DNA of 64,000 nucleotides from Pseudocercospora fijiensis CIRAD86 (lineage: Eukaryota > Ascomycota > Dothideomycetes > Mycosphaerellales > Mycosphaerellaceae): the NCBI RefSeq assembly GCF_000340215.1, contig NW_006921539.1, positions 3,187,624 to 3,251,623 on the forward strand. Direction: 5' to 3'. Made by a program: the position numbers and the translations under genes. Positions 1-42,612 of this stretch are shown here, piece by piece. The notes under the pieces are model-generated. The model was not told where the DNA came from. It did not search any database and was given only the letters and a program-made list of their open reading frames with translations. Each line of letters begins with the position of its first letter. The first letter of the stretch is position 1.

Positions 1-240
1 CAACTATATAAGTAGCTAGTTCGAACTATATAATTTATCGGTTTTTAAGAAGTGTACGAATGTATACGTAGCTTCAAGCAAGCCCTTTATAAGACTTAGC
101 AGTATAGCCGGCAGCGTAGCCGGCATTTTTAGTCCTTAGTACTTATAGAATTTTCGAATCCTACTTAGGCTACGTAGTTATATAAAGGTACTTATATAAC
201 CTCAAATCTATAGACAATTAGCTAAGGGCACTAACCAATC
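1..240. repeat. Terminal inverted repeat, left arm of hAT copy 1
   Basis: This segment reads, in reverse complement, like about 9487-9670, including the blocks ataaatt..atcggttt..taagaagtgta, gcaagccctttataag and the stretch around ctatagacaattagcta. The last 100 or so bases of the arm, with the TAGACCCCG terminus, lie outside the window. Confidence 0.7.
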
Positions 241-1010
241 AAAAGCATATATATATATATATATAAGGCATTATAGTTTAGTTCGGAAACTGCACTCCTT
301 AGGTATGAATTTCATCCTTTCGTTTACGGTTTAATTCCCTAACTGCTTAGTAGAATGTCTTTATCTAGATCTAGGCAGAACTTATCGATTTCCCTAGAAG
401 TCCTCCTCCTTAAGAAGTTTATACACTTTCCTACCGAACTATTCGATAATATTAAGTACTAGGATAGCTCCTCCCTCGGTATCGGTATAGTATATAAAAG
501 AGCTATAAGGCAGCTCTATAGAACGTTCTACTAGTCACTCGCTATACTAAGGCCGAATGCTAGTTCGTTCCTTAGAACTCTTAGTTATTTAGGAGATATA
601 AAGGGTAGGGTAGGTAGTAACTTCGTATTATATAAGGAGGTAGAGGCTGCTATAGAAGAGGCCTTCAACCTATAGAAGATAGTAAAAGATATAGAGGCAG
701 CTATAGGTCTAGGTACCTAGTTGAATTTTTAGTAGGTAGAGTATAAGGATATTTAGAGGGAGTATTAGGTAGAGTTGCGAAGGCAGGTATATAATATGCT
801 CTAGAAAATAGGGATAGTACCTATAACTATAACTATTAGGCTCTTCAACCTTCCTTATTTTTCCCTGTTTCCTTTTTATAAAAATCTAAACTAATACAAA
901 TCAACCGGAATATCTATCTTCATTTAGTTCTTTGAAAAACCTAGCAGCGTAGCTAGTAGCGTAGCCGGCAGCGTAGCCGGCAGCGTAGCCGGCCTTTTTA
1001 CTCCTTAGTA
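130..1010. repeat. Extra segment in hAT copy 1, no gene recognised
   Basis: Similar sequence (ccttagtact preceded by a T run) borders this stretch at about 127-145 and 995-1010. Copy 2 lacks it, so it looks like an insertion or a local duplication. It contains an (AT)n run at about 247-265 and several GCCGGC motifs at 943-993. The 350-850 part has long stop-broken frames, but I could not tie them to any family. Confidence 0.4.
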
Positions 1011-1218
1011 CTAACGGGATTTTAGGAGACTTCTATTCCGTACGGCTAATAAAGTATACTATACTATATATATATACTTAGAGAGTATTTAGAGCGCGGT
1101 ATATAGCGCCGTATAATAGCGGCTTATTTCGCATATAGAAAAGCTTGTAGATAATACTACGAATATCCTTTCTACTAGAATATCTATCCTACCTAGTACC
1201 GTCTCGAATATAGATATT

Positions 1219-1891
1219 CTAGCCTTTTAGAATCTGATCGAGTGCTTTGAAATCCTTATCTATAATCGTTATACGCTTCGCGTAGATAGCTATAAGGTTG
1301 ACCGCTAAAATAGTATTAGTATAGTCCGAAAAGAGGTAGAAGAGAAATATATATTCGAAGATACGAACTAGGTAGGCTTCTATAGCCTCTTAAAGGGCGC
1401 CTATCGCGGAGGCTTAGAAGCGAAGGTCCGTTCTATAATCCTAAGCAATTTCGCGAATAAGTCGTTAGAAAGGAGTTTTGCGGATTAGGAGCTAAGAACT
1501 CTTCTAATATTATCGAATCTTACGGACGGCTACGGCTAAAGAAGGATTAGTAAAAAGACAGTAAGAATGCCGGCTACGCTACCGGCTACGCTGCCGGCTA
1601 CGCTACCGGCTATAAATAGGACTTACTTCCTAAGCGCTATCGACGCTTCGTACGATTGCTACTAGCAGTAGAAGCGCTAGTTGTCGTCTTACGTAGAGCC
1701 TTACCCGCCGTTGTCTTACGCGGAGCCTTACTCGCGACGCCCTTTCTAGTACCGGAGCTAGCGGTAGTAGTAGCAGCCCTCTTACGTTAATATACTATAC
1801 TCGTTCTACTATTTCCGGTCTTATTGCGACCCGTAGAAGCACTAGGTCCCTTCTTACGAGGCGTCGTAACTTAGTTAAGTAGACTCGCTAT
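1219..1891 (-). pseudogene. Histone H3-like gene B, copy 1 (RIP-inactivated)
   Basis: Read on the minus strand with RIP stops taken as former Gln/Trp, this is a histone H3. The tail has H3-tail-like pieces (SKAPRKTTA, GKALRKTTT) and follows a basic Ser/Thr-rich leader that probably began at an ATA at 1891 (mutated ATG). A 91-nt intron (1536-1626, gtaagt..tactaat..tttag) separates tail and fold. Splicing it gives the H3 signature RPGTVA (Leu for Pro after RIP), then LLIRKTPF, RLIREIA, DYRTDLRF, ASAIGAL and EAIEAYLV. A second AT-rich insert (about 1305-1364, ending ctattttag) precedes NLIAIYAKRITIIDKDFKAL, the loop 2 and last helix. Family knowledge: H3 packages DNA in nucleosomes; a transposon-borne role is inference. 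It lies downstream of gene A in the same element and is clearly dead here. Confidence 0.85.
1536..1626 (-). repeat. Intron of H3-like gene B with GCCGGC minisatellite (copy 1)
   Basis: Splice sites gtaagt and tttag and a tactaat branch site are visible on the minus strand. Inside are four spaced copies of a 12-bp unit of the form tagccggcagcg. The matching intron in copy 2 (19997-20062) is 66 nt with about two units, so the copies differ in repeat number. Confidence 0.7.
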
Positions 1892-1899
1892 TATAAAAG

Positions 1900-2400
1900 T
1901 CGTCGAATTAAGGAAAAAAGTGCGTTACGAAGGTATACGAAGGCGCGCGCGGAGCGAGGGTATTACGGAGGTAGTAGATATAGAGCGTAGAGGTATAGGT
2001 ATCGATACGAAGGTTGAATATAGCGGTAGTATCGCGGTGTCGCTAGGCAATAGAGTAAGCTTCGCGCAAGCCTATATTATAGTAACGTTAGAGCAAGGAA
2101 AGAAGGCAGGTACGGCTAAAAAAGGCAGGCACGGCTAAAAAAGGCAGGTACGGGAGACTTTGAAATATAGCCGGCATATATAGCCGGCATAGTAATAGGC
2201 GAAAGCCTCCTTTTAATAAATAGCCGGCGTAATAATAGTATCTTACTATAGTATAGATATTCTTTAGTAATGCCTTTACTAGCTATAGTAATCTTATAAG
2301 TAACCTAGGCCTATTGCTAGTAAATATAAGAAATATTAGGTAGGCTATACTAAATAAGCTAGTTATTTAGTAGGAAAAGGCCTACTACCGTCTCTATATG
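1900..2400. other. Spacer upstream of H3-like gene B, copy 1
   Basis: Non-coding spacer with an aggcaggtacggctaaaaa repeat (about 2103-2152) and GCCGGC motifs at 2163-2190 and 2398-2422. A 72-codon open stretch here (1920-2138, plus) has no family resemblance and is antisense to the element genes. The counterpart in copy 2 is 19100-19750. Confidence 0.4.
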
Positions 2401-2619
2401 CCGGCTACGAGTGCCGGCTATCGCTCTAAATTCAACTCCGCCCTATCTCGGAGGCTAAGGTACCGAGCGGAAACCCTATAGCTTATATTCACTCGGTTGT
2501 CGCGGAGCGCTTATAGGTAAGGTATTAGAAAAGAGTATAAAAAGTACGAGAAGAGTATCCTAGGATATAGGTCGTAAGTAAATAAGAATAGTACGCCTAG
2601 TTATTTATATAGTACGTTA

Positions 2620-3090
2620 CTTTATACGACTAAGAGCCTATATTATCTTATACTTCGCTTATAAGACCTCGACTCTACTAGTATACTATCGATCTCTTCC
2701 TCGGTCGCTAATACGCTATCTTAATTCTTCTTCGAGTTACCGGACTTAGTGCGCATCTATAGCTATATAATAGCGCTACGTATTATAGAGAATTTCTCGT
2801 TAAAGTTTCTCTCTCGTAGGCTTACTATCTGCCTCGTAGTATAGAGGATTAAAGTACTAATACTAAAGAATCTCCTTATAGTTAGGATGCTAGGGCTCCT
2901 TAGGACCTTTGTGTTTTAGGTCTAAATAGAGACGTATTATAAACGTTCTATCGCCCTTTCGCTTACTACCCGCTAGGTCGCGATATACGAAGAAACTAAT
3001 CTAAATATAGCTCGTCTCTATAATAGCCGGGTAAATATAGAGCGCTAGGTTTCTACTTCGTACCTTAGATTTAGGGACGGCGCGGAGATA
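2620..3090 (-). pseudogene. Unidentified element gene between the two H3-like genes (copy 1)
   Basis: A minus-strand frame interrupted mainly by RIP-type stops. It starts near 3088 with a basic stretch (around VPKSKVRSRNLAL) and continues through a segment rich in Lys, Asp and Tyr. The same frame is conserved at 18402-18780 in copy 2, which argues for a real former gene or exon. I do not recognise the family. It is flanked on both sides by GCCGGC repeats (3103-3123 and 2398-2422), as are the other genes of the element. Confidence 0.4.
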
Positions 3091-3183
3091 AAATCAGAAA
3101 TATAGCCGGCACCTATAGCCGGTAAAAGGATGCGAAAATAGGCCTCCTCCTAGGTTAATCTAACGACTAAATACAATTTCCAA

Positions 3184-3960
3184 CTAATCCGCTATAAACC
3201 GACGCCGAATTTTAGCTAGAAGCTATATATCTTTATTTTAAAGAGTAACCCGCTTCGTATAGATAGTAAGGAGGTTTTAAAGCTTAAGCTCGGTTACGAG
3301 AAATACCTCCGTAGCTTCCTAAAGAGTACTAATCGCTTTAGCCGTAAATCGTATACTAGACCGAAAATCTAATATAATTTCTCGGACGAGTCGCTAGAAG
3401 GGAGTCTTAGGGATTAAAAGCTCGGTCCCTCTTTTATTTTAGAAAAGCCGGATCTAGCGAAGGGTAATAGTACCTAGTTTAAAGCGCCGCTTCTTTATCG
3501 TCGAGTCCTGCCTTATTCCCTTTCTTTTAATAGAAAGATAACTTTTCTTCGCGATAGTCTTCGTCCGCCTACTCTTTTTAGCCTTCTCCTATCTACCTAT
3601 AGCCTTCTTATTTTTCGGTACTGTTTTCCGAGGAACCCCCTTCCTTTATATATACTACGGAGAGCCTTACTCTTCCGATATTTCGTTCTCGCTACGGTCT
3701 CCCTATACTTAGCTTGCTTTACCCTTACCCTTTAGCCTCTAAAGATATTTATCTGCGCGTTTAGGCGATAAGGGTATATCGGTAGGACCTAGAAAATTAA
3801 TAAGCATATAATCGTAAGGAGATATTAATGCTTCTTATCTTCTAGAACAAATAGTCTTCTATTAAACCGCCTTATTAGGTTATCGTTAGATTCGAATAAA
3901 GGATAGTAGCTTAAGGAAAGGGAGACAGCCGGCTTAGGAAGGCCCGAAGAGCCGAATCCT
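3184..3960 (-). pseudogene. Histone H3-like gene A, copy 1 (RIP-inactivated)
   Basis: The minus-strand core at 3184-3500 spells a histone H3 fold once stops are read as Gln/Trp: KKRRFKLGT, then a helix ending IRLF, GTELLIPKTPF, RLVREII, DFRSSIRFTAKAIS, EATEVFLV, NLLTIYTKRVTL, NKDI and LLAKIRRRF. These line up in order with H3 from the alpha-N helix (GTVALREI, TELLI, PFQRLVREI) to the C-terminal KDIQLARRIR. No intron is needed in the core. Upstream (about 3500-3960) lies a long basic region, much longer than the 38-residue tail of normal H3. It differs from gene B in loop 1 and helix 2, so these are two distinct variants. Seen: the fold. Inferred: a chromatin role for the element. Confidence 0.85.
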
Positions 3961-4149
3961 TAAGGCATATTTATCTTTAAGAATATAGGGAAAGGGAAGA
4001 AGGAGAGGAAGAGCGAATAGAGAATTAGAAATAGTCCGTAGGTAAGCGGGGTCGGTTGCTATAGCAACTAGTCTGTTTAGGTCCTAGGAATTCGAAATAC
4101 ATTTCGGATATATACCGGCTATATACGCCGGCTATATTACTTTATACGT

Positions 4150-7100
4150 AAACGCTTCGTCTCCTTAAAGCTACTCTAAGCCTATATATATTTCTACTTC
4201 TCGACCCGGTATCGCCTTCTACCTCCGCCCTCCTCCTCTTCGTTATCGCTAATTAGGGTTTCGCTTAGACTAAATTTCGCATTCTCTTCGCGCTCCTAGG
4301 TTTCTTCGATTTTAAGGTTTTCTAATTCCTCGATCAACTCCTTTAGTATAATCTTTAGTAACCTACCTTAGCGATTCTAGTAGAAGAGATAGTATCAGAA
4401 TACTATAATAGATTCGAAGGTAGTAGGCGAGTATATTCGATTAAAGCGGCCCTAGTAACGAGCGATACTAAAAGACCTCTTATAGCCTATACCTACGCTC
4501 GGGATAGCGAGGACGTCCTAAGCGACCGACGCTATCGTTAGAAACTTAGGCTCTAACCGCTACTATATAGCGAGAATATCGTCTCTGAATTCGTTTAGAA
4601 GACCGGTAAGATCTAGAGATTATTAGCCCTCTTTCTAAGCCTACGGGTTTATACTTACTCGCGCGCCGATAGAGATCGAACTCTTCTTTATTCACTTTAG
4701 TAGTTGCTTCCTCTTCTACCTCTACTTCCTATCTACGAAACAGGTATAATATCGGAGCCTTCTAAACCTTCTTTTTCTTTATAGGAGCTGTATTTAGACT
4801 AGTTTCTTTCCGACGCTCGTAGAATATCTTTTCTAGAATAGTCTAGTAATGCTTCGGCTATACCTCGTCCGCCTTCTATTCCGGCCTCTGCTAGTATATA
4901 TCCTTTTCTACCGGGTTAAGTAAGTACGTAATACTATAGATATCCCCGAACGAGTTAAAGGTAGTACTATAATATTTATATAACTTAGTATAGGAGGTAT
5001 CTATAGCTTTCGTTATAGCTACTTTCTAGGGAACGCTCTTCTTAGCTAGCTTAGCTACGGTTTCCTCGAGCTCGTTAAAGAGCTAGTTATAGTACGTAAA
5101 GACAAGGTAGATCGTCGGTCCTCGGGTTCTTCTAATCGTAGTAGTAACCTTCGCGTAATGCTTACTAATATCGACGAGATACTCTACTTAGCGCTATTCG
5201 GCGGCGGTAAGGCCGAGCTACTTAATACCCTCGGAACTCTAATAGATCTCGAGAGCGGTACGTAAAGTACATCCCCTCGTAACTATATAGAAAGTCGAAT
5301 CGAACCGGGTCTTAACGTCTTAGGTAAAACGGAGTAGGCGCTAAGGAGGCCGCTTTTGCTATCGCTTATTCTATACGATATTCTAGGTATCGGTTTTAGG
5401 GCGCTCGATTAGGTTCTTTTAAATAGCCTCGAATCGGTTATATCTCTATAAGCTCGAGTTCGTATATATTACTAGACGACGAAGCTAGAGAAAAAGAGTT
5501 AGAACTATACTAGGTTGCCGGCTATAGGTGCCGGCTACGGACAAAAGTTATACCTTATATAAAACGAGAGCGAGGCTCTCTACCTTATCCCGTCTTATTG
5601 CTATAATAAGTTTCTCGACTTTCGACTTTACTTTATCCTTATCTAGGATCTTCTATTAGTCGTCGTTTAATAGTGCAATTTTAAGCGTCTTAAAGAGGGC
5701 TCGGATCGCGATTTGAACTATATAAGCGAGGTAGGGAAACTTCTATAGGGATGTAACTAGCAACGACGTCGGCTCCGATTCAATAGGGCTAGGGCTATTA
5801 ATAGGCTCCTCTTTATCGTTATTATCGTACGTATTGTCGTACGTATCCGGAATCGTAGCGAGCTTAACATTCGGAAGATTAAGCTAGATTGTAGACCTTA
5901 TAATCTCCTCTACGTACTCGACCCTATCGATACAATTAGTGATTTTAAAGATATATACGAGTAAATTGTATATACAACGCCTTATATAATGTTCGATTAT
6001 TACTAGCGTTGTCCGTAGTAATCGAGATTAGTTTCGTTATTACGCTAACCCTATCTATTACCGTATAGATAAGCTTCGCTATATCCTTACTAGTATAGGA
6101 ACCTAGAATTTTAGGGAATCCGATTATAAGTTCCTAGAGTTTCTAATCCGAATTAATAAAGTATAGTATAATCGAGAGGAAGGAGGCTCTTATAGTCCGG
6201 CTTAACTAGCTATCGATAGTAATAGCTACTCGGCGAGTATTACGGAGGATCTCCCGAATATCGTCTAACGTAGCCTCTTTATTCTTTTCGAATATAATAC
6301 GCTAGGTTGTCGCGCCGAGAAATAGGGGAGGGTAGTTTATAAGATATAGGTATGTCTTCTATATAGACTCCCTTTCGTAGAAGTCTTCCGGAAGACCGTT
6401 TATAGCTAGCATTTCGTTTACTAGTTGCTTAAAGTCTTCGGGAGAGAAATCGGTAGCCTTTAATCCTAGAGCTTCTTTAAGCGTAGCCTATAATAATTAG
6501 CTAGATCTCTACGGTTGATTTAGGTAGCCGGAATCTGTAGCCGGTAGCTGTAGCCGGCAGCTATAGCCGGCATTTTAGAAGATATACCTCTTTCTAGAAC
6601 GCTGTATCTATATCAACTCTCCTCTCTCCTTAAGATTCCCGATACCGTTTAGAATAGAGATAGTTCGTAGGCGATGAGTTCCTATCCCCTAGTTTCGGGT
6701 ATTTCAAGATTGAACCGTAGAAGTTGTAGACAATTACTAGTTAATCTTTAAGTCGAGAAGTCGTATAACGGTGCAATGCCCCCTCTATAAAGAACTTCTA
6801 GAATGTGTCCGTTCGCTCCTTACTCCCCTATCGCATCGAGTACTTCCGGAGTTTACACTCCTTCGAACGTAAGTATAAAGGGAACTATATCTTATAGACC
6901 TATTAATTGAACTGCTCTATATACTCGGGTTTCTAAAGATACGCCTAGCTAGCCTTTTCGAAGATTTCCGGGTTAATACTCGATATTCTTATATCTCCGA
7001 ACAACCTTCTACTTAGACTCCGTAAAGGTAAGGACTAGGTAGTAGTACCCTATAATGAATTCCTACTACTAGGATTCGGAGAGGATGAATCTAGCCCTAA

Positions 7101-7340
7101 TCGTAGTCTAGGACTCGATAGGCTCGAAGGTAAGTATACGACCTCCTCTCGACGTTATCGCAATCTCGCTCGTATACTAGACTATTTCGACTATCGTCTC
7201 GTTATTACCCTTCCTAGTATAGCGCCTAGTGTATATACAATATCGGTCGGTATGTTTTAAGGTTTCGTACGGTAAGGTAAGGACTTAGGAGTAGTAGATA
7301 TATACTAGTAGCTATAGAGAAACACCCTTTCTTTTATAGC
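4150..7340 (-). pseudogene. hAT family transposase, copy 1 (RIP-inactivated)
   Basis: Mirror image of the transposase in copy 2 (14200-16935) and aligned with it throughout. Reading on the minus strand shows the hAT core with an LISITIDN-type motif (Asp of the DDE triad), the KYYSTTFE region and the C-terminal hAT dimerisation block with a DVLTI..R(S/L)FS..R pattern near 4450-4530. The enzyme would cut and paste the element using its terminal repeats, in the nucleus. Dozens of TAG/TAA codons sit where Gln or Trp is expected. GCCGGC motifs interrupt the 3' flank (4113-4136) and the middle (5515-5540, 6536-6573). The middle motifs may lie in former introns. Confidence 0.85.
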
Positions 7341-7499
7341 ATCGTATCGTTAGGAACAGCTAGGCAGTAAATAGCTAGCTACCTTTTTTTTTGTTTCCTA
7401 GCTACCTAACTACTAGATTTTTTTTCCTAGCTACCCTAGCTAGCCTAACTACTAGAATTTCTTTCCTAGCTACCCTAACTACCTGAATTTTGCCTTCTA

Positions 7500-8900
7500 T
7501 ACGGCGGCTCTCTCCTACTAACGGAACCGAGCTACTATACCTAACGAATCTAAGCTCGTTTTTAGTCTTAATCTATCCTCTTTCGGTATAAGACACTCGA
7601 TAAGCAAATGCTTAGGCCGAGTCTAACTACGAAACCTAAGACTAACTAATAGCTCTATTAACTAATCCTAATCCTCGAACTCCTTCCGCTTCTTAGTAAA
7701 GACCTTAAAGAGCGCTCGAGCTTCTTCGGGTACCTGCGGAGTAGTCGAGATAAAGCCGTATCGCTAAAATAGGTAATCCTTCGGAGGCTTATATAGAGAT
7801 TTAGAGAATTCTAACGCTAACCTATCCTACTAGTAGCTTAGATTCCGGATATAAGCCCTCTCTGCCTTAGTAAAGATTTTATATAGCAGTGGCACTCTAC
7901 CTTCGAGAAACGCTTTCTATTTAACTATTAGTATCTGCCGGCTACGAACGCCGGCTATATATGCCGAGTATAGAATAATTACCTATACCCCTTCCTCCTA
8001 TAGTAACACTTCTGCCGTCCCTAGATACCTAGCCCCGATCGTATTAATCGCAAGCTACTTTGCCTTTATAGACGCAAAGGCTTCGCTCTAATACTAATAA
8101 AGAAACTTCTACTCTATATCGAGGATATAAAGACGACTAGTCTCGATTCTAATCCTTGCTAGCTTTTCGTAGTAGCTTTAACTATAATTTTCTAGATTGA
8201 TAGGACTTATGCTTTAGCCCTTTACTAGTATCTCGTTTCTTTAACTATACTCGATCTACTCCTAGCGCTTATCGTCTATAGCGTTAGGCCCTAAGACTGT
8301 ACCTGTTACTAGATCGACGTATAGTATCTCCTCGCTTTTTTCAGTTCCTTTATTCGTAGTATTAAGCTCTATCGCGGCATCCTAAACTCTAGCATTATTG
8401 TTCTCGGCTATCTAAACATCTCCGTTACTATTAGTCGTATCGATAGAGGTAGCGGCTACAGGTCTGAATGCTATTAGTTAACGTATTAAAGAAAAATATG
8501 CCGGCTATAGCTGCCGGCTACGGCTGCCGGCTATAGCTACTAGCTACGGCCGCTAGCTAGATTGACTTACGCTACTAGAACTTTACGCTCGAAAACTAGC
8601 CGCAATTCTTTCCTCCTCTTAGCCTTCTCTTAGGTTGTCTTCTTATTCTAACCTTTACCTTTTTCTATAGGCGCTAGCTATCGATAGAATGCCTTATTCC
8701 GCGCCTTTCTTCTCTTATCCTTAGCTCTTTTATCCTTATCTATCTTATCCTTTCTCTCGCGGTCTCGTACGGAATTCTTCTTCGTAGAGTACTCCTCTTT
8801 AGTCTTACGCTTTTTAGTTAGACGCTTAGGCAAAACAAACTCGCGGTCTTCAGTTCTATCTTCTATTTAGCGCGCGGCGCGCTTCTCTCTTACTATTATA
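7500..8900 (-). pseudogene. Unidentified Lys/Arg-rich gene upstream of the transposase (hAT cargo)
   Basis: A minus-strand frame that is open apart from RIP-type stops. The N-terminal third (about 8860-8590) is dominated by Lys, Arg, Asp and Glu, for example KRLTKKRKTKEEY and RDRERKDKIDKDKRAKDK: a charged coiled coil or nuclear-localisation stretch. After a GCCGGC-rich gap (8498-8560, probably an intron) it continues through ordinary globular sequence (around ARIRIETSRLYILDIE) to about 7500. Copy 2 keeps only the last part (13833-14050). I do not recognise the family. Placement upstream of the transposase suggests a DNA- or chromatin-binding accessory protein, but this is inference. Confidence 0.45.
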
Positions 8901-9054
8901 AGGGAAAGGGGCGGGGGCGCAGCGTATAGTAGTTGTTGTCGGTATAGGTATAGAGGAAGAAGTTGAAAGTGTAAGAATATCGCGAAGCCCTAATTGTTGC
9001 CGCCTACGTAACGTTATATAGGTAAGCTTTCGCAACTACGGTAACTACGCCCCG

Positions 9055-9350
9055 GCAATAGCAACTACGCCCTAGCAACGGCAACTACGCCCTAGCAACG
9101 GCAACTACGCCCTAGCAACGGTAATAAAGCGTAGTAAATACAACCTAGTAACTATTATAGCCGGCAATCGTGGCCGGCAGTCGAATAAGAGTGTCCTTAT
9201 AGCAAAACTACGCCCTAGCAACGGCAACTACGCCCTAGTAACGGCAACTACGCCCTAGCAACGGCAAAAGAGCGTAGTAAATGTAATAGAGTTACTATTA
9301 TGGCCGGCAATCGTAGCCGGCAGTCGAATAAGAGTGTCCTTATAGTAAAA
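9055..9350. repeat. Compound tandem repeats near the end of hAT copy 1
   Basis: Runs of a 20-bp unit (caacggcaactacgccctag) occur at about 9055-9121 and 9204-9264. Each run is followed by a related 85-bp block ending gccggcagtcgaataagagt and continuing through gtccttatag (9121-9205 and 9264-9350). The whole region is thus roughly a 143-bp higher-order repeat, present twice. Subterminal repeats are typical transposase-binding regions of hAT elements, though here that role is only inferred. CpA sites partly survive. Confidence 0.6.
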
Positions 9351-9360
9351 CCAATATAGT

Positions 9361-9486
9361 CTCTAGTTTAAACTAGGAATCTATATAGTTCGAAAAAACC
9401 AAACCGGAACTAGGGAGCTAGTTCGCCGCTAAGAAACCAAACTATATACGTTTGGTAGTTCGGAAACCGAACTACTGCGGGGTCTA
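9361..9486. mobile_element. End of a small hAT-type non-autonomous element
   Basis: The sequence ends in actactgcggggtcta at 9486 and resembles the right part of the MITE at 17066-17457 (accggaact, ccgctaagaaacca, actatatacgtt). The next 8 bases, ttagttag, would be the target duplication, but I could not find the partner end, so this may be a truncated MITE. Confidence 0.45.
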
Positions 9487-9760
9487 TTAGTTAGTGCCTT
9501 TAGCTAATTGTCTATAGATTTAGGGTTATATAAGTACCTTCCTACAACTGAAAAATGCCGGCTACGCTACCGGCTACACTCTCGTATCTTATAAAGGGCT
9601 TGCTTCGAGTTACGTAGACATTCTTACACTTCTTAGAAACCGATAAATTCTATAGTTCGAACTAGCTAATCCTATAGTTGCTTAGCAAACTAACCTGAAC
9701 CAAACTAGATCTTCGGCTTAGCAAACTAAACCAAACCAACCCGAACTACTACGGGGTCTA
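9487..9760. repeat. Terminal inverted repeat, right arm of hAT copy 1
   Basis: Ends with accaacccgaactactacgg followed by ggtcta at 9760, the same terminus as copy 2 (20784) and the MITE at 17066-17457. The inner part matches bases 1-240 in reverse complement. Several AAACCAAAC-like subrepeats precede the end. Confidence 0.75.
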
Positions 9761-9774
9761 TAACTAACGAGGTC

Positions 9775-12700: not shown

Positions 12701-13470
12701 TTCGTACGCTCTAACCTAAGCTAAGAACACTAACGCAGCGAACACTAACCGCGTAGTAGTACTAGATTACAAGCCTAGCAACCTAGTTTAGCTCGATACC
12801 CGCAACCTCCGTACTAACCGATTAAGCAAGAAACTAGATTACAAGTAGCTTAGCCTATTTCCTATCGACAAACCGATAGGGCGACGTTTATATAGATTAA
12901 CGCTTCCGGACTCGATAAAACTAATCTATCTAGTCTTCTATACGAGTATACTACGCGCTGCCTCTAATAATCCCTTACCCGGACAAGAATAGGTTAATAT
13001 ACCGCTACCGGTATTAGTTACGCGTAACGGCGAAGAGCTAGAAGAAGAATAGGAGCTAGAGAAGATATACAGCTCGCGGAAAGCTAAGGATAGCGAAATA
13101 TAGTATAAGGCACGTTAGAAGGATAGATCGGAGACTAAGCAGCGATAGGATAACTTCTTACTAGATACTAAAGAGCTAGTAGCCGAGTATTACTAACGAT
13201 ACCTACGCAGGTTGAAGCTAGCGGCTACTAAGGACTTACTACCGGTTAAGAAATATAGACTATCGGTAATACAAAAGGGCTATGCTTCTCTACCGTAAAC
13301 CGCTATACTATTAATACTAGCCTCTAACCCTAAGAAGACTCGCTACCGAGTAGTTAAGACAGAACCTAGCACTTGCCGCTATAAGAGCCTCACCGCTAGA
13401 CCTAATGCTACTAGTAAGTTGCTATATAAGCGGAAGGTACGAGGTACTCGTATCGCCCCCTAGGATTTAA
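9775..13470 (+). pseudogene. Gypsy pol relic: RT, RNase H, integrase, chromodomain
   Basis: A Ty3/gypsy polyprotein with RIP stops. The 62-codon open stretch at 9990-10178 lies just before the reverse transcriptase. RT motifs: [29 protein letters not shown], and the catalytic box as YLDDFVIVYLNNVLIYT (10603-10650). RNase H and the tether follow to about 11400, with a Glu/Asp-rich linker at 11500-11640. The integrase has an HHCC-type region, a first Asp in LDYIIDLPPSYDEHLD, second Asp mutated to Asn (IFSNRGTQF) and Glu in TNRQSERTNQTLE. The C-terminal segment near 13030-13200 (KIYSSRKAKDSEI..TKELVAEYY) fits a chromodomain, which targets such elements to heterochromatin. Confidence 0.85.
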
Positions 13471-13567
13471 TATTATATAGTAACGGATATAACTATAGAC
13501 ATTAAAGAAAGGCCTATTACACGTTACCGAGACGTCGTAGGAGCTCCTTATTTAAGGAGGGGAATAC

Positions 13568-13832
13568 TATTACGGAGTAACGCCTAGGTCGGCTATTGCG
13601 GCCTAAGGTATTAAGTCTTAGCGAGGATACTTCCTCGTACGCTTCCTTCTACCTCTTAGATAGAACTATACGACAACTCGTCTTCTATTTACCTACCTAT
13701 TGTTTATTGTCTCGTAACACTACTAGTAGGATAGTTTCGCGTTATAATTCTCTAAATCTCTATATAAGCTTCCGAAGGATTACCTATTTTAGTAATATAG
13801 CTTTATCTCGACTACTCTATAGGTACCTAACG
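13568..13832 (+). repeat. 3' LTR of the 9.8-13.8 kb gypsy element
   Basis: A purine tract (aaggagggga, about 13555-13564) is followed by tattacggagtaacg, a RIP-altered TGTTACGG-type LTR start. The LTR ends around gtacctaac at about 13832, where hAT copy 2 sequence resumes. No second LTR is in the window, so the exact ends are approximate. Confidence 0.6.
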
Positions 13833-14199
13833 AAGCTCGGGCGCACTTAAAGATCTCTTTTAAGAAGCGGAGAGAGTTCGAAGACTAGGATTAATTAATA
13901 GAGTTTCTAGCTAGTATTAGGTTTCGTAGTTAGACTTGGCCTAAGTATTTGTTTATCGAGTATCTTATACCGAAAGAGAATAGATTAAGACTAGAAGCAA
14001 GCTCGGATTCGTTAGATATAGTAGCTCGGTTCTATTACTAGGAGAGAGCCGCTATATAGAAGGCAAAATTCGGATAGCTAGGATAGCTAGGGTAGCTAGG
14101 AAAAGAATTTTAGTAGTTAGGCTAGCTAGGGTAGCTAGGAAATAAAAAAATGTCGCTAGCTAGTTACTATCTAGCTATTCCTAACGATATAATACTCTA

Positions 14200-16935
14200 A
14201 ACGGAAGGATATTTCGTTATAGCTACTAGTATATATCTACTACTTCTAATCTATTCGTATAAAACTTTAAAATATACTAAAGAAGATTATATATATACTA
14301 GGCGCTATACTAGGAAGGGTAACGACGAGGCGCTAGTCGAAATAGTCTAGTATACGAACTAGACTATAACGACGTCGAGACGAGGCTATATACTCGCCTT
14401 CGAGCCTATTAAGTACTAGACGACGATTAGGGCTAGGCTTATTCTCTCCGAGTCCTAGTAGTAGGAATTCGTTATAGGGTACTACTATCTAGTCCTTACC
14501 TTTACGTAGTCTAAGTAGAAGGTTATTCGGAAATCTAAGAATATCGAGTATTAATCCGGATATCTTCGAAAAAGCTAGCTAGGCGTATTTTTAGAAACCC
14601 GAGTATACCGAGTAGTTTAATTAACAGGTCTATAAGATATATTTTTAAGCAACTAGCAAACGAAATACTAGCTATAAACGGTCTTCCGGAAGACTTCTAT
14701 AAAAGAGAGTCTATAGAGAAGATATATCTATATCTTATAAACTACCCCCCCCCCTATTTCTCGGCGCGACTACCTAGCGTACTATATTTAAGAAGAATAA
14801 AGAGGCTACGTTAGACGATATTCGGAAGATCCTCCGTAATACTCGCCGAGTAGCTATTACTATTAATAGCTAGTTAAGCTAGACTATAAGAGCCCCGTTT
14901 CTCTCGATTATACTATACTTTATTAATTCGGATTAGAAACTCTAGGAACTTATAATCGGATTCCTAGAAATTCTAGATTTCTATAATAATAAGAATATAG
15001 CGAAGCTTATTTATACGGTAATAGATAGGGTCCGCGTAACTGCGAAACTAATCTCGATTACTATAGATAATACTAGTAATAATCGAATATTATATAAGGC
15101 GTTATATATACTATTTACTTATATTTGTCTTTAAAATTACTAATAGTATCGATAGGGTCGAGTACGTAGACGAGATTATAAGGTCTATAAGCTAGCTTAA
15201 TCTTCTAAATGTTTAGCTCGCTATAATTCCGGATATATACGATAAGAAAGATAAAAAGGAGCGTTAGCCTAGATTTAGTAATAGCCCTAGCCCTATTAGA
15301 TAGGAGCCGACGTTACCGGTTATATCCCTAAAGAAGTTTCCCTACGTCGCTTATATAGTTTAAATCGCGATCCGAGCCTTCTTTAAGACGCTTAGAATTA
15401 TACTATCGAACGACGACTAATAGAAGATCCTTAATAAGAATAAAGTAAAGTCGAAAGTCGAGAAACTCGTTATAGTAATAAGACTAGATAAGGTAGAGAG
15501 CCTCGCTCTCGCTTTATATAAGGTATAACTTTAACTATAGCCGGCAACTATAGCCGGTATCGATAGCTAGTACCTATAGCCGGTAATCTAGTATAGTTCT
15601 AACTCTTTTTTCTCTAGCTTCGTCGTCTAGTAATCTATACGAACTCGACCTTATAGAGATATAACCGATTTAAGGCTATTTAAAAGAACCTAATCGAGCG
15701 CCCTAAAACCGATACCTAGAATATCGTATAGAATAAGCGATAGTAAAAGCGGCCTCCTTAGCGCCCCCTCTGTTTTATCTAAGACGTAAAAACCCGGTTC
15801 GATTCGACTTTCTATATAGTTTCGAAGGGATATACTTTACGTACCGCTCTCGAGATCTATTAGAGTTCTAAGGGTATTAAGTAGCTTAGGCTTACTACCG
15901 CCGAATAGCGCTAAGTAGAGTATCTCGTCGATATTAGTATATATTACGCGAAGGATACTACTACGATTAGAAAAGCCTAAGGACCGACGATCTACTTTAT
16001 CTTTATATACTATAACTAGCTCTTTAACGAGCTTAACGAAACCGTAGCTAAGCTAGCTAAGAAGAGCGTCCTATAGAAAATAGCTATAATAAAAGCTATA
16101 GATACCTCCTATACTAAGTTATATAAGTATTATAGTACTACCTTCGAGTCGTTTAGGGATCCCTATAGCGTTACGTACTTACTAAACCTAGTAGAAAAGG
16201 ATATATACTAGTAGAAGCGGGAATAGGAAGGGGGCGAGGAATAGCCTAAGTATTACTAAACTATTCTAGAAAAGATATTCTATAAGCGTCGGAAAGAAGC
16301 TAGTCTAAATATAGCTTATATAAAGAAAAAGAAGGCTAAGAAGGCTCTAATATCCTACCTATTTCGTAGTTAGGAAGTAGAGGTAGAGGAGGGACTTAAA
16401 GTAACTACTAAAGTAAATAAAGAAGAGTTCGATCTCTATTAGCGCGTAAATAAGTACTAAACTTATAAGCTTAGAAAGAGGGCTAATAATCTCTATCGTC
16501 TTAGAATTCGTCTAGCATTCTCGCTATATAGTAGCGGTTAGAGCCTAAGTTTCTAACGATAGCGTCGGTCGCTCGGGACGTCCTTACTATTCTAAGCGTA
16601 GATATAGGCTATAAGAGGTCTTTTAGTATCGCTCGTTACTAGGGCCGCTTTAATTAAATATACTGGCCTACTACCTTCGAATCTATTATAGTATTCCGAT
16701 ACTACCTCCTTTACTAGAGTCGCTAAGGAAAGATACTAAAGATTATACTAAAGGACTTAATTAAGGAATTAGAAAACCTTAAGATTAAAGAAACTTAGTA
16801 GCGTATAGAGAATACGGAATTTAGTTTAAGCGAAACCCTTATTAGTAATAATAAAGAGTAAGAGGGCGGAGGTAGAAGGCGATATAGGATTAAGAAGCGG
16901 AAGCGTATATAGGCTTAGAGTAGCTTAAAAGAGAC
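14200..16935 (+). pseudogene. hAT family transposase, copy 2 (RIP-inactivated)
   Basis: Plus-strand relic of a hAT transposase of about 900 codons. Landmarks: TTIRARLILSESQ and EFVIGYYYLVLTF in the N-terminal part, FLSIILYFINSD (14900-14940), LISITIDNTSNN at 15048-15083 (the hAT Asp motif), KLYKYYSTTFESF near 16120, and a C-terminal dimerisation block DVLTILSVDIGYKRSFSIAR near 16577-16640. The intact family form of that block is DVLTIP..G..VERLFS.AR. A Glu/Lys-rich tail follows. GCCGGC motifs at 15538-15590 interrupt the frame, perhaps in a former intron. Role: cut-and-paste transposition. All breaks seen are TAG/TAA of RIP type, so it is inactive. Confidence 0.85.
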
Positions 16936-17065
16936 GAAGCGTTTACGTAGAAGGTAATATAGCCGGTATATATAGCCGGTATATATTCCTAATATATTTC
17001 GGATTCCTAAATAGACTATTTACTATAGTAACCTATACCGCTTATCTACTAACAATTTCTAAAAC

Positions 17066-17457
17066 TAGACCCCGTAGTAGTTCGGGTTAGTTTAGTTTAG
17101 TTTGCCAAGCCGAAATTCTAGTTTAGTTTAGTTTAGTTTGCTAAGGAACCGGTATACGGACCGGTTTGCCGGCTACGTACCGGCTACGGACAAAAACCTA
17201 ACCTAAAACACGTCTAAATAGCCCGAAACACGTCTAAATAGCCCGAAATACAGATGCAATCGTATAGCATATATAATATAGGGCCCCCGTGCCCGATCCG
17301 AGGTCGTCGTATATCGTCGTAGTTTAGTCGGATTTCTCGGAAACTAGCTTAGACTAGCGGGGTAAAAAACTAAACCGGAACTAGACCGGAGGGGTACCGC
17401 TAAGAAACCAAGCTATATACGTTTTATAGTTCGCAAACCGAACTACTACGGGGCCTA
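17066..17457. mobile_element. 392-bp hAT MITE with perfect 8-bp target duplication
   Basis: Begins tagaccccgtagtagttcgg and ends gaactactacggggccta, an inverted pair identical in type to the ends of the large hAT copies. The flanks tctaaaac (17058-17065 and 17458-17465) are an exact 8-bp duplication, as hAT transposase makes. It holds no gene. The larger element could have mobilised it. It sits between the transposase and H3-like gene A of copy 2 and is absent from copy 1. Confidence 0.9.
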
Positions 17458-17689
17458 TCTAAAACTCTATTCGCTCTTCCTTTCCTTCTTTCCTTTCCCT
17501 CTATTCTAAAAGATAAATATACTTTATAGATTCGGCTCTTTAGGCCTTACTAAGTCGGCTACCTACCCTTCTTATAGCGACTATCCTAATTACGAATCTA
17601 ACGAGGACCTACTAAGACAGTTTAATAGAAGACTATCTAATTAGTAAGATAAGAAGTATAAATATCTCTTTACGATTATAGGCTTATTA

Positions 17690-18312
17690 ATTTTCTAGGT
17701 CTTAACGATATATCCTCGTCGCCTAAACGCTTATAAAGATACCTTTAGTACCTAGAATAAGGTAAGGGTAAAGTACGCTAAGTATAGGAAGACTATAGCG
17801 AGAACGAGATATCGAAAGAGGAGGACTATTCGTAGTATATATAAAGCAAGGGGATTCCTTAGAAAATAGTACTAAAAAACAAGAAGGCTTTAGATAGATA
17901 AAGGAAGGCTAAAGCGGCTAAAAAAAAGTAGGTAGACGAAGGCTATCGCGAAGAAAAGTTATTCTTCTATAAAAGAGGATAAAGGTAGGTCTTAACGATA
18001 AGGAAGCGGCGCTTTAAACTAGCTACTAATACCCTTTACGAGATCTAGCTATTCTAAGACAAAAGAGAGACCGAGCTTTTAATTCCTAAGACTCCCTTCT
18101 AGCGACTTATCCGAGAAATTATATTAGATTTTAGGTCTAGTATACGATTTACGGCTAAGGCGATTAGTCCTTCTTAGAAAGCTATAGAGGCATTTCTCGT
18201 AACCGAGTTTAAGCTTTCTAACCTCCTTACTATCTATACGAAGCGGGCTACTCTTTATAATAAAGATATATAGCTTCTAGCTAAGATTCGGCGCCGGTTT
18301 ATAGTAGGTTAA
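17690..18312 (+). pseudogene. Histone H3-like gene A, copy 2 (RIP-inactivated)
   Basis: Frame positions 18001-18312 give the H3 fold: RKRRFKLATNTLYEI, TELLIPKTPF, RLIREII, DFRSSIRFTAKAIS, KAIEAFLV, NLLTIYTKRATL, NKDI and LLAKIRRRF. The same frame continues upstream to about 17710 through a long basic, Lys/Ser/Glu-rich extension (KAKAAKKK, SSSPKRL). The tail is therefore more than 100 residues, where canonical H3 has about 40. Stops are all of the CAG/CAA-to-TAG/TAA type. It pairs with 3184-3960 in copy 1, and core differences between copies are mostly RIP-type. Centromeric H3 variants also have long divergent tails, but the loop 1 here is not obviously lengthened, so I do not call it CenH3. 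Confidence 0.85.
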
Positions 18313-18401
18313 TTAGGATTTATATTTAGTCGTTAAATTAATCTTAGAGGAGGCCTATTTCGCATCCTTTTACCGGCTATAGATACCGGCTATACTTCTA
18401 A

Positions 18402-18960
18402 TTTTATCTCCGCGCTATACCTAAATCTAGGGTACGAAGTAGAAACCTAGCGCCTTATATTTACTCGGTTATTACGGAGATAAGCTATATTTAGACTACT
18501 TTCTTTCTATATCCCGGCTTTATTCGATAGTATTCGTAGTTTAACTACGCTAAGAAGTAGAAGTAAATATAACTAAAGAAGAGGAGAGATTATCGTACGA
18601 CCTAGGCATTATCGCTCGCCGCTATTTATATAACTAGGGCGACCGAGAAGAAGATCGATAGTATATTACTAGAGTCGAGCGACGACTCTACCTACGAGTC
18701 TAATAAAGAAGAACGTATAGCGTATATAAGAGCCGTAAAGAATCCTCGTCCCGAGATACTATCTCTCCCTCCCTACCGTACTTACTCGATTATATAGAAT
18801 ATAGTCTTATAAGCGAAGTACGAGATAATATAGGCTCTTAGTCGTTTAGAGTTACATACTATATAAATAACTAGGCGTACTACTCTTATTTACTTACGGC
18901 CTGAATCCTAGGATACTCTTCTCGTACTTGTTTATATACTTTTTTAATACCTTACCTATA
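18402..18960 (+). pseudogene. Unidentified element gene between the two H3-like genes (copy 2)
   Basis: Counterpart of 2620-3090. It starts around LRAIPKSRVRSRNLALYIY, with the same frame as copy 1 (LRAVPKSKVRSRNLALYIY). Flanked by GCCGGC motifs (18371-18395, 19046-19072). Family not recognised. It could be a separate gene or a distal exon of gene A. Confidence 0.4.
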
Positions 18961-19752
18961 AGCGCTCCGCGATAACCGAGTATATATAAGGTATAGGGTT
19001 TATACTCGGTACCTTAGTATCGAGATAGGGCGGAGTTGAATTTAGAGATATAGCCGGCACTCGTAGCCGGTATATAAAGACGGTAGTAGGCCTCTTCCTA
19101 CTAAATAGCTAGCCTTACTAGTATAGCCGAACGTAGTATAGATATTTACTAGATTTCCTAGCACTAGGCTTAGGTTACTTATAAGATTACTATAGCTAGT
19201 ACCTCTAGCCGGGTCTTTATAGATACTTAGACGGTATATAGTCGTATTATTACTATTATAGTAATAATAGCGGAAGATATCTAGGTAGAATTTCCTAAAT
19301 TCTCCCTATAAAGCGAGTCGCTATTTTACTATCCGGTAGATAGGTATTTCGATATCTAGACGAGGAAGCCGGTTTAGAATCTAATCGAATTACTAAAGAA
19401 AATCTATATTATAGTAGGATGCTATTATTATACTAACTATTTATTCAAAGGAGGCTTTCGCCGTATTACTATACTAGCTATAGGTACCGGCTATATTTTA
19501 AAGTTTGCCGTACCTGCCCTTCTTAGCTATACTTGCCTTCTTTGCTTACTCTAATATTACTATAATATAGGCTTACGCGACGCTTATTCTATTACCTAGT
19601 AATACCGCGATACTACCTCTCTCGCTATATATAACTATCGTATTAATACCTATACCTCTATACTCTATATTTACTACCTCTACTATACCTTCGCTCCGCG
19701 CGCGCCTTCTTATACCTTCGTAACGTACTTTTTTATTAATTAGACGACTTCT

Positions 19753-20378
19753 ATAGTAGCGAGTCTGCTTAGCTAAGTTACGACGCCTCGTAAGAAGGGA
19801 CCTACTACTACTATAGGCTATAATAAGACCGGACCTACTAGAAAGAGTATAGTATATCTACGTAAGAAGGCTGCTACTACTACCGCTACCGCTAGTACTA
19901 GAAAGCGCGTCGTAGGCAAGGCCCCGCGTAATACGACGCCTAGCGCTTCTACTACTAGTAGCAATAATCGTAGTAAGCGTCGATAGCGCCTAGGAAGTAA
20001 GTTTTATCTATAGTCGGTAGCGTAGCCGGCATTTTTACTCCTTTTTACTAATCCTTCTTTAGCCGTAGCCCTTTATAAGATTCGGAGGTATTAGGGTATT
20101 AGTAAACTCCTTATCGCTAAAGCTCCTTTCTAACGACTTATTCGCAAAATTGCCTAAGGTAGTATAAGGGACTATCGCTTTTAAGCCTCGGTATTAGAAG
20201 CCCTTTAGGAGGCTATAGAAGCCTACCTAGTTCGGTCTTTAAATATATATTTCTCTTCTACCTCTTCTCGTACTATACTAATACTATTTTAGCTATTAAC
20301 CTTATAGCTATCTACGCGAAGCGCGTTACGGCTATAGATTAGGGTTTTAAAGCCCTCTATTAGATTATTAAGGGCTAG
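19753..20378 (+). pseudogene. Histone H3-like gene B, copy 2 (RIP-inactivated)
   Basis: A basic tail (TTPRKKGPTTT, TRKRVVGKAPRNTTPSAS) from a probable start near 19753 (ATA for ATG) leads to a 66-nt intron at 19997-20062 (gtaagt, tactaat, tttag). Removing it joins R-L-G to TVALYKIRRY, recreating the H3 motif PGTVALREIRRY. Then come LLIAKAPF, RLIRKIA, YRF.ASVLEAL and EAIEAYLV. After an AT-rich insert ending ctattttag (about 20236-20295) comes AINLIAIYAKRVTAID, then GFKALY..IIKG and a stop at 20376-20378. The intron position and H3 register agree with copy 1. Loop 1 is less well kept than in copy 1, so copy 1 is closer to the ancestral gene. Confidence 0.85.
19997..20062 (+). repeat. Intron of H3-like gene B with GCCGGC motifs (copy 2)
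   Basis: 66-nt intron with gtaagt 5' site, tactaat branch site and tttag acceptor. It carries about two tagccggc/tagtcggt units, where copy 1 has four. Confidence 0.7.
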
Positions 20379-20517
20379 AATGTCTATATTTAAGATACTA
20401 GTAGGTAGGATAGATATTCTAGTAGGATAGATGTTCTTAGTATCCTCTATAAGCGTTTCTATATATAAAATATGCCGATATTATACGGCGCTATATAGCG
20501 CGCTCTAAATAATCTCT

Positions 20518-20519
<2 letters not shown>

Positions 20520-20552
<33 letters not shown>
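20520..20552. repeat. (TA)n microsatellite
   Basis: About 16 TA units close to the end of hAT copy 2. A shorter run occurs at the equivalent place in copy 1 (about 1065-1076). Confidence 0.9.
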
Positions 20553-20553
<1 letters not shown>

Positions 20554-20599
20554 TATTATACTCTATTAGGCGTACGGAATCAAAGTTTTTTAAAATTCT

Positions 20600-20784
20600 A
20601 TTAGTACTAGTCTTATAAAGGGCTTGCTTTAAGTTATATATACATTCCTATACTTCTTAGAAACCGATAAATTCTATAGTTCGATCCTCCTACTCCTATA
20701 GGTACTTAGTAAACCAACCTTAACTAAACTAGAATTTCGGCTTATTAAACTAAACTAAACTAACCCGAACTACTACGGGGTCTA
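20600..20784. repeat. Terminal repeat of hAT copy 2
   Basis: Contains the same blocks as the copy 1 ends: ataaagggcttgctttaagt, cttagaaaccgataaattct, AAACTAAACTAA subrepeats and the terminus cgaactactacggggtcta. Confidence 0.8.
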
Positions 20785-28284: not shown

Positions 28285-28481
28285 TATTAGGGCTAAAGGG
28301 GCTATATGTAATTAGTATATAACTAGGCCGAGTAAAGCTAGGGTCTCGATGCCTTAGGTAGGGCTTAGCGCTTAGTATTAGGCTAACTCTCCTACCTTCC
28401 TCCCTCTTCTCTTAGATCCTTATCGAATACTACTTATACCTACTACCACCCTATCTACCTACTAACATAACCTATATTATA
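28285..28481 (+). repeat. 5' LTR of outer chromovirus
   Basis: Starts tattagggctaaagg and ends aacctatattata. Matches 42379-42575 nearly base for base. The left flank is atagc. Confidence 0.95.
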
Positions 28482-28689
28482 TAGTATTCGATCTACCCTT
28501 TAAGGGCAGTAGCTAGATAGTCCCTATTTTAAGCTTTTAGTAGTATAGCTACGAGAATTATTAATTTAACTATATTACGCCCGAGGAACGGGACCTATAC
28601 GTACTATTTACTAAAACAACCGTACTAATTATTAAGCAAGGCCTTCTATACGGCCTATTATACTAAGTTAATCGTACTAGGCTAATACT

Positions 28690-36250: not shown

Positions 36251-36316
36251 TATACCGCTAAAAGCTTAAAATAAGGACTATCTAGCTACTGCCCTTAAAG
36301 GGTAGATCGAATACTG

Positions 36317-36505: not shown

Positions 36506-36510
36506 GCTAT

Positions 36511-37250: not shown

Positions 37251-37254
37251 ACTA

Positions 37255-42575: not shown

Positions 42576-42612
42576 ATAGCTATATTAACTAGTATATTAT
42601 AGGCCTTTTCTA

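What the first reader, a model, noticed from the sequence alone, without database searches (positions are those of the whole stretch)
17690..18312. A hAT transposon carries a histone H3-like gene with a long basic tail (gene A)
Seen: 18001-18312 (plus) and 3184-3500 (minus) encode, in order, every helix landmark of H3 (TELLIPKTPF, RL(I/V)REI, DFRSSIRF, FLV, TIYTKR, NKDI, IRRRF), at equivalent places in two copies of the same element. An upstream basic extension of more than 100 residues is in frame. Known: core histones are not usual transposon cargo. Inference: the element may have used its own H3 to mark or open its chromatin, or to escape silencing.
Basis: partly seen in the sequence, partly recalled or inferred. 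Interest (0 to 1): 0.92.

Follow-up and report, generated by a model that had tools for sequence, protein, structure and literature searches.

The report
Fungal transposon carrying histone H3-like genes
Two dead copies of a large fungal jumping gene each carry two histone H3-like genes; such an element was already described in print, but its H3-like genes look like old transposon-owned genes with introns and long tails rather than fresh copies of the host's histone.

Summary
In detail: gene A is H3-like and sits in both window copies of a hAT transposon (terminal repeats, 8-bp duplications, transposase homology), broken by RIP. The genome fits Pseudocercospora fijiensis, and this is already in print: Dhillon et al. 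2019 (PMC6710886) report 784 H3-like copies in 471 hAT elements there; Manning et al. 2013 (PMC3538342) report an intact, transcribed hAT-borne H3-like gene in Pyrenophora.

What I add: the element carries two different H3-like genes. Gene A has about 148 codons before the fold, including a probable first exon and intron. Gene B has a long tail and two introns. The printed '16-residue insertion' of the second copy is best read as a 48-nt intron: 95 of 302 pattern-matched copies keep a 5' splice site that RIP erased in the rest. B's first intron lies 3 nt from a host H3 intron site, so B is not a plain retrocopy. Subfamilies that split before RIP differ by exonic indels that keep the frame; transversion tests are mixed, and for B negative. 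A and B form their own clades beside host H3 and CenH3.

The chromatin-escape idea is possible, untested. Core finding already known; the reinterpretation is of moderate interest.

The parts
1..9760 (-). hAT element copy 1, visible part (its right end lies beyond the window start, where the genome record reads N)
   Evidence: TIR at its left end, similarity to seven TIR-to-TIR elements
13715..20784 (+). hAT element copy 2, left part missing, abutting a Ty3/gypsy pol fragment
   Evidence: similarity to copy 1 and right-end TIR
9741..9760 (-). terminal inverted repeat TAGACCCCGTAGTAGTTCGG of copy 1
   Evidence: exact match; 393 exact matches in the genome against 0 for the reversed control
20765..20784 (-). 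terminal inverted repeat, right end of copy 2
   Evidence: exact match
5963..6448 (-). hAT transposase core of copy 1 (broken)
   Evidence: tblastn with an open 778-aa hAT transposase of the same genome, E 5.9e-8
14820..15077 (+). hAT transposase core of copy 2 (broken)
   Evidence: tblastn E 5.8e-4
16490..16790 (+). hAT dimerisation-like C-terminal part of the transposase, copy 2 (weak)
   Evidence: read-through; in two other copies of the element Pfam Dimer_Tnp_hAT only 12.2-12.7 bits, E 0.12-0.16, below cut-off
17519..17648 (+). gene A probable exon 1, copy 2
   Evidence: alignment to copy 1, start codon ATG or ATA across subfamilies
17649..17698 (+). gene A probable intron, copy 2
   Evidence: splice-like ends; 1-nt length difference between subfamilies
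17699..18312 (+). gene A exon 2, copy 2: basic tail and H3 fold (fold from 18022)
3839..3968 (-). gene A probable exon 1, copy 1
3789..3838 (-). gene A probable intron, copy 1
3184..3788 (-). gene A exon 2, copy 1: basic tail (from 3788) and H3 fold (from 3474)
   Evidence: Pfam Histone 3.9e-22
1627..1891 (-). gene B exon 1, copy 1: basic tail with SKAPRKTTAGKALRKTT
1536..1626 (-). gene B intron 1, copy 1 (GTAAGT...TACTAAT...TTTAG)
   Evidence: splice signals kept, inside of variable length
1353..1535 (-). gene B exon 2, copy 1: H3 fold, first two helices
   Evidence: Pfam Histone 1e-20
1305..1352 (-). gene B intron 2, copy 1 (48 nt; the printed 16-aa insertion)
   Evidence: 5' splice site kept in 95 of 302 genomic pattern matches
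1219..1304 (-). gene B exon 3, copy 1: end of the H3 fold
19756..20378 (+). gene B, copy 2 (exons 19756-19996, 20063-20244, 20293-20378), with a 1-nt deletion in exon 2
17066..17457 (+). 392-bp non-autonomous element with the same TIRs, inserted in copy 2 only, 8-bp duplication TCTAAAAC

Best explanation
The window holds two RIP-dead copies of a 9.6-9.9-kb hAT transposon of (by inference) Pseudocercospora fijiensis that owns two H3-derived genes, A and B, placed after its transposase. Shown: the H3 fold, the hAT context, RIP decay, two distinct genes, introns in B, subfamilies older than RIP, net frame-keeping indels between subfamilies. Inferred: both genes were made as proteins by the element over the time in which its subfamilies split, so they are resident H3 variants and not a recent copy of the host gene. 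Most likely mechanism (inferred, about 0.25 on its own): the proteins could enter nucleosomes, but their long altered tails offer a poor substrate for the host's H3K9 silencing mark, which would have kept the element's chromatin or the host's heterochromatin looser until RIP destroyed the genes.
For: Two gene families form separate clades (A 100/99, B 99/96) beside host H3, host CenH3 and 16 other H3s. B has two introns; one is 3 nt from the host H3 intron site, the other explains the printed 16-aa insertion, with GTATRT kept in 95 of 302 pattern matches and 0 in controls. Majority indels between subfamilies: 8 of 10 exonic ones are multiples of 3 and the other two cancel within one copy, against 3 of 22 outside exons, Fisher p 0.00056; 2 of 15 and p 0.0015 with edge cases dropped. 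Gene A fold has fewer RIP-blind differences than non-coding parts, 16 of 288 against 34 of 275, p 0.003. Fold hits canonical H3 best. Tails: A reads SRRTK(T/A)IAKKSY, B lacks an ARKS motif, where H3 has ARTKQTARKST. An H3-like hAT gene in Pyrenophora is intact and transcribed (PMC3538342, section read).
Against: No third-position excess of transversions in A (24, 13, 18 by codon position) or B (23, 23, 26). Fourfold sites vary less than other coding sites: A 0 of 81 against 53 of 600, B 6 of 63 against 65 of 429, the reverse of purifying selection; RIP hides part of such changes but I could not correct for it. B exons differ more (72 of 498) than B's non-coding parts (20 of 297) (totals summed by me). 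Gene A exon 1 shows no constraint (18 of 130, p 0.72). The exon model was drawn from the same alignments as the indel count. In gene A the less decayed copies read GCAAG at the 5' splice site, so that intron would be of the rarer GC-AG type. No expression, no intact copy, no chromatin data. Chromatin function is not tested at all.
Confidence: 0.5

Rival explanations
1. Passive transduplication, as printed by Dhillon et al. 2019: a hAT element captured a processed transcript of the host H3 gene, amplified it, and RIP inactivated every copy; the H3 part never did anything for the element.
For: Published for this species with 784 copies. Gene A has no intron at either host H3 intron site. The transversion tests for purifying selection are weak or negative. 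148 of 150 scored Histone matches carry TAG/TAA stops, the two exceptions being host H3 and host CenH3.
Against: Gene B keeps an intron 3 nt from the host site and a second one. A and B are different lineages, 45-56% and 55-64% identical to host H3 in the fold. Frame-keeping indels. Long tails unlike the host's.
Confidence: 0.33
2. The H3-like proteins served transposition directly, for instance as basic DNA-binding partners of the transposase or as a way to tether it to nucleosomes, with no role in silencing.
For: Both genes lie in line with the transposase in the same orientation in the copies compared; very basic tails; the fold keeps K64, R69, R72, R83, K115 positions (numbering recalled; residues).
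Against: No direct evidence; TIR-bearing 373-392-bp elements without these genes also moved, although proteins could have been supplied in trans.
Confidence: 0.1
3. The genes are centromeric H3 (CenH3) derivatives that biased the element to centromeres.
For: Long divergent N-terminal tails and fast divergence are CenH3-like traits (recalled).
Against: A and B lack the longer loop 1 of the host CenH3 (11 residues between RE and the following Q/T in A, B and H3; 15 in host CenH3, counted on the sequences); identity to host CenH3 (41-51% A, 48-55% B) is lower than to host H3 (45-56%, 55-64%); best solved-structure hits are canonical H3.
Confidence: 0.03

Closest known systems
H3-carrying hAT element of Pseudocercospora fijiensis (Dhillon et al. 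2019, PMC6710886; parts 1-5 of 7 of the text read, the rest reference list)
   Same: By inference the same element: hAT, 9.5-9.9 kb, 20-bp TIR, 8-bp TSD, one or two H3-like sequences, RIP, functional H3 on scaffold/contig 6, 74-Mb genome.
   Different: They read it as a captured host H3 transcript without introns and the second copy as having a 16-aa insertion; here the insertion is an intron, B has another intron near a host intron site, A has a probable extra exon, and A and B are distinct lineages. Their TIR sequence is in a figure I could not see.
H3L gene in a hAT element of Pyrenophora tritici-repentis (Manning et al. 2013, PMC3538342; passages and part 1 of one section read)
   Same: hAT element with transposase and an H3-like gene that is neither H3 nor CenH3, with insertions in the tail.
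   Different: 5.6 kb with a central ORF, nearly identical copies, intact, ESTs present. Dhillon et al. report no DNA similarity between the elements. I could not obtain the H3L sequence to compare.
Canonical histone H3
   Same: Fold, all helices and most DNA-contact positions.
   Different: Tail replaced and lengthened; two extra residues between alpha-N and alpha-1 in A; 45-64% fold identity to host H3.
Transposons with epigenetic cargo: TET/JBP dioxygenase in fungal DNA transposons, SET methyltransferases, plant Vandal anti-silencing protein (passages of PMC12730594)
   Same: DNA transposons carrying a gene that could act on silencing.
   Different: Those are enzymes or regulators; this is a histone-fold protein, and no activity is known.

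Membership tests
hAT transposon superfamily | terminal inverted repeats | tested here: met
   20-bp TIR, 393 exact genome matches, 0 in the reversed control; 5 matches in the window with up to 3 mismatches
hAT transposon superfamily | 8-bp target site duplication | tested here: met
   perfect in 5 of 7 TIR-to-TIR elements (not in L040, L043), 2 of 2 short elements, and the short element in the window
hAT transposon superfamily | hAT transposase | tested here: met
   tblastn with an open hAT transposase of the same genome hits 10 of 10 sequences tested, best E 2.9e-8 to 8.6e-6; Pfam Dimer_Tnp_hAT only E 0.12-0.16, below cut-off, and no other hAT domain at E up to 5
P. fijiensis H3-hAT family of Dhillon et al. 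2019 | length 9.5-9.9 kb with one or two H3-like sequences | tested here: met
   seven TIR-to-TIR elements of 9565-9934 bp; gene A and gene B sequence found in each of the seven by blastn
P. fijiensis H3-hAT family of Dhillon et al. 2019 | same TIR sequence | not testable with these tools
   printed in a figure only; figures are not held
histone H3 family | histone-fold profile match, H3 as best relative | tested here: met
   Pfam Histone 1.6e-28 and 1.9e-26; PDB search best hits all named histone H3 among the 60 shown of 176
histone H3 family | canonical modifiable tail ARTKQTARKST | tested here: not met
   A: SRRTK(T/A)IAKKSY(S/L)S in the aligned copies, with variants; B: no such motif
CenH3 | longer loop 1 than H3 | tested here: not met
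   A and B have the H3 length; host CenH3 has 4 residues more (sequences)
processed retrocopy of host H3 | no introns at host intron sites | tested here: inconclusive
   gene A: none at the host sites; gene B: an intron 3 nt from the host H3 intron 2 site, which speaks against it for B unless gained later
Pyrenophora H3L lineage | common ancestry of the H3-like proteins | not tested
   H3L protein not found by name in the listed hits

The most novel reading that the evidence does not exclude
A hAT transposon lineage owned a pair of histone H3 variants, spliced and kept in frame across at least four subfamilies, whose long non-canonical tails let element chromatin resist H3K9-based silencing; the Pyrenophora H3L would be a living relative or a parallel case, making transposon-encoded nucleosomes a recurring counter-silencing strategy.
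Probability: 0.25. Interest if true: 0.85.

Novelty: already known. Interest (0 to 1): 0.42.

Why it matters
If the reinterpretation holds, a published case of a housekeeping gene copied by accident becomes a case of a transposon that owned its own histones, and the living Pyrenophora gene gives a direct way to test whether mobile DNA can build or spoil nucleosomes. It also corrects the anatomy on record: an intron was read as a protein insertion because RIP had erased its splice site, a trap that can recur in any RIPped gene.

Tried and rejected
CenH3 origin: rejected on loop 1 length and identity. Reading gene B as having a 16-residue insertion: rejected after the splice-site prediction was met. 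I first also took copy 2's frame change in B for the whole explanation; it is only a 1-nt deletion in that copy. An earlier count said host CenH3 has 2 extra residues in loop 1; recounted it is 4.

Codon-level selection tests: tried with purine/pyrimidine coding, which RIP cannot change; no third-position excess, and the fourfold test came out reversed. Part of this is an artefact (a silent change to A after C makes CpA, which RIP then turns into a different codon), so I hold the test inconclusive and report it as evidence against.

Structure prediction of gene A (copy 1, read through, with 24 H3 proteins): mean pLDDT 61.0, pTM 0.38, four long helices in H3 order plus a short one; Foldseek's first six hits are nucleosome entries but with query TM 0.24-0.27. 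Too poor to count as evidence. Closest proteins: no listed protein is more than 57% (120 listed of 361) or 61% (120 listed of 7994) identical to the gene A query; (119 listed) did not name a fungal hAT relative of B. NCBIfam had no match for A; the B query was out of frame by my mistake and was redone against Pfam. Pfam searches for DUF659 and Dimer_Tnp_hAT over the genome (21 and 47 places) were not cross-checked against element coordinates. An Rfam scan found nothing. The right end of copy 1 could not be seen: the record reads N upstream of the window apart from its last bases.

Rows left out of counts: L026 (carries a short element inside gene A) was left out of the final gene A alignment; L049 (unlike tail) was aligned but left out of the four-subfamily counts, so 22 of 23 aligned sequences were counted for A; all 18 for B.

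Full report
WHAT IS THERE. The window lies at G000:C8:3187624-3251623 of a 73.9-Mb genome whose largest contig is 11.88 Mb. This, and the host H3 gene on contig 6, fit Pseudocercospora fijiensis CIRAD86 (74 Mb, largest scaffold 11.8 Mb in PMC4981457, passages; functional H3 on scaffold 6 in PMC6710886). The species is an inference. The first 20.8 kb hold two copies of one element in opposite directions with a Ty3/gypsy pol fragment between them (reverse transcriptase, RNase H and integrase domains). Both copies show strong RIP: TpA/ApT 1.84 and 1.85, (CpA+TpG)/(ApC+GpT) 0.27 and 0.09, against 0.53 and 1.36 at the host H3 locus.

THE ELEMENT IS A hAT TRANSPOSON. Its ends carry TAGACCCCGTAGTAGTTCGG. 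The genome has 393 exact matches and none to the reversed control. I fetched seven TIR-to-TIR stretches, 9565-9934 bp; five of seven have a perfect 8-bp target duplication, two do not; both short 373-bp elements with the same TIRs have one too. A 392-bp element of that kind sits inside copy 2 and not in copy 1. An open hAT transposase from elsewhere in the genome hits 10 of 10 element sequences tested by tblastn (first hits E 2.9e-8 to 8.6e-6; copy 2 in the window 5.8e-4), around the motifs that read T.D.W and TRDNAS in the query (their catalytic role is recalled). Pfam finds only a sub-threshold Dimer_Tnp_hAT.

GENE A. The H3 landmarks named in the finding are there. Copy 1's exon 2 hits Pfam Histone at 3.9e-22 and two other copies at 1.6e-28 and 1.9e-26. 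A profile of ten read-through copies hits 176 distinct PDB sequences, the 60 shown all named histone H3. Aligned copies fall into at least four subfamilies that differ by transversions and indels, which RIP does not make: 13, 5, 3 and 1 of the 22 sequences counted. In each of them a start codon (ATG, or ATA after RIP) opens a 130-nt first exon, followed by a 50- or 51-nt stretch with intron-like ends, followed by exon 2 in frame. The whole frame is 244 codons in copy 1, about 148 of them before the fold. The intron is probable, not proven: in two less decayed copies shown its first bases are GC, not GT (L018, L013).

GENE B AND THE LOST INTRON. A second H3-like gene lies further on. Its fold (Pfam 1e-20 for exon 2 alone) follows an 88-codon tail that contains SKAPRKTTAGKALRKTT, like the GGKAPRKQLA stretch of H3 (host H3). 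Between tail and fold lies a stretch that starts GTAAGT in 8 of 9 printed copies (GTAAAT in the ninth), has TACTAAT in 9 of 9 and ends in AG in 9 of 9, and varies in length from 66 to 103 nt in the eight copies measured. Its position is 3 nt from the second intron of host H3. Dhillon et al. describe a 16-residue insertion in the second H3 copy. I predicted that it is an intron whose 5' splice site GAAT|GTATGT had been turned to ATATGT or ATATAT by RIP. Of 302 genomic pattern matches, 95 keep GTATRT; both controls gave 0. With it removed, the protein has H3 length there. So the transcript-capture account does not hold for B as it stands, unless both introns were gained later.

WERE THE GENES KEPT BEFORE RIP? 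Among majority indels between subfamilies, 8 of 10 exonic ones are multiples of 3; the other two (10 and -4 nt) lie in copy 2 and cancel. Outside exons 3 of 22 are (p 0.00056); with edge events dropped 2 of 15 (p 0.0015); without the copy-2 pair 8 of 8 (p 9e-5). The exon model came from the same alignments, so this is not independent. Single copies do carry frame-breaking indels: 4 of 23 in gene A exon 2 and copy 2 in gene B. Coding purines and pyrimidines only, which RIP cannot alter, the fold of A differs less than non-coding parts (16/288 against 34/275, p 0.003), its tail a little (21/269, p 0.052), its exon 1 not (18/130, p 0.72). There is no third-position excess (A 24, 13, 18; B 23, 23, 26). 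B exons differ more than B's surroundings (72/498 against 20/297). Fourfold sites differ less than other coding sites (A 0/81 against 53/600; B 6/63 against 65/429), the reverse of what purifying selection gives, partly because RIP hides silent changes. On balance I take frame-keeping as moderate support and the codon tests as against.

RELATIONS. A maximum-likelihood tree of 34 folds puts nine A rows in one clade (100/99), seven B rows in another (99/96), and host H3, host CenH3 and 16 other H3s together (85/96, not fully supported; CenH3 is a long branch). Fold identity to host H3 is 45-56% for A and 55-64% for B; host CenH3 has 70%. The closest proteins listed are ordinary H3s at up to 61% (A) and, for B, 66% over 73% of the query for the best hit. 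The Pyrenophora H3L sequence was not identified, so kinship with it is open.

HOW IT MIGHT WORK. The fold keeps the residues at most H3 DNA-contact positions (positions recalled), so entry into nucleosomes is plausible. The tails do not carry ARTKQTARKST: A reads SRRTK(T/A)IAKKSY, B has nothing like it. From general knowledge, the fungal H3K9 methyltransferase DIM-5 needs the residues around K9. A protein of this kind could dilute that mark. This step is inference. In this genome RIP won: of 150 scored Histone matches (772 candidates) 148 carry stops, and the two without are host H3 and host CenH3.

KNOWN AND NEW. The element, its RIP decay, its copy number and the H3 likeness are in print (PMC6710886, parts 1-5 of 7 read) and a 2026 paper repeats it (PMC13041039, passages). 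Six searches of the paper library, listings only apart from the papers named, showed me no paper that reads the insertion as an intron or B as a separate gene; subscription papers and preprints are not held. Hence 'already known' for the finding, with a corrected anatomy and a bolder reading left open.

Noticed in passing
window 17066-17457; L046, L047: Short non-autonomous elements of 373-392 bp share the TIRs of the big element; one is inserted in copy 2 and another, in L026, sits inside gene A.
   Followed up: partly
window 9761-13714: RIP-decayed Ty3/gypsy pol fragment with reverse transcriptase, RNase H and integrase domains between the two hAT copies.
   Followed up: partly
proteins P0262, P0286, P0308, P0315 and others: Clusters of 10-13 member sequences of 242-285-aa H3-like proteins in unnamed ENA contigs: a long extension, then a changed H3 tail (M(V/A)KTKKTRKLTKKEK and similar), then an H3 fold. 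Some copies differ by changes such as R to H, C or Q. They may be another multi-copy, perhaps transposon-borne, long-tailed H3 family; their genomic context could not be seen here.
   Followed up: partly
L049 (G000:C9:1494750-1495900): A copy whose gene A fold matches the others but whose tail and upstream part differ strongly, as if joined from another subfamily.
   Followed up: no
window 28285-42580: Another large inverted pair of repeats, about 6 kb per arm and about 85% alike, with short 183-195-bp repeats at their ends.
   Followed up: no
window 45700-49000: A GC-rich island (about 51%) without RIP signature, with a 249-aa open reading frame at 45987-46736 (-).
   Followed up: no
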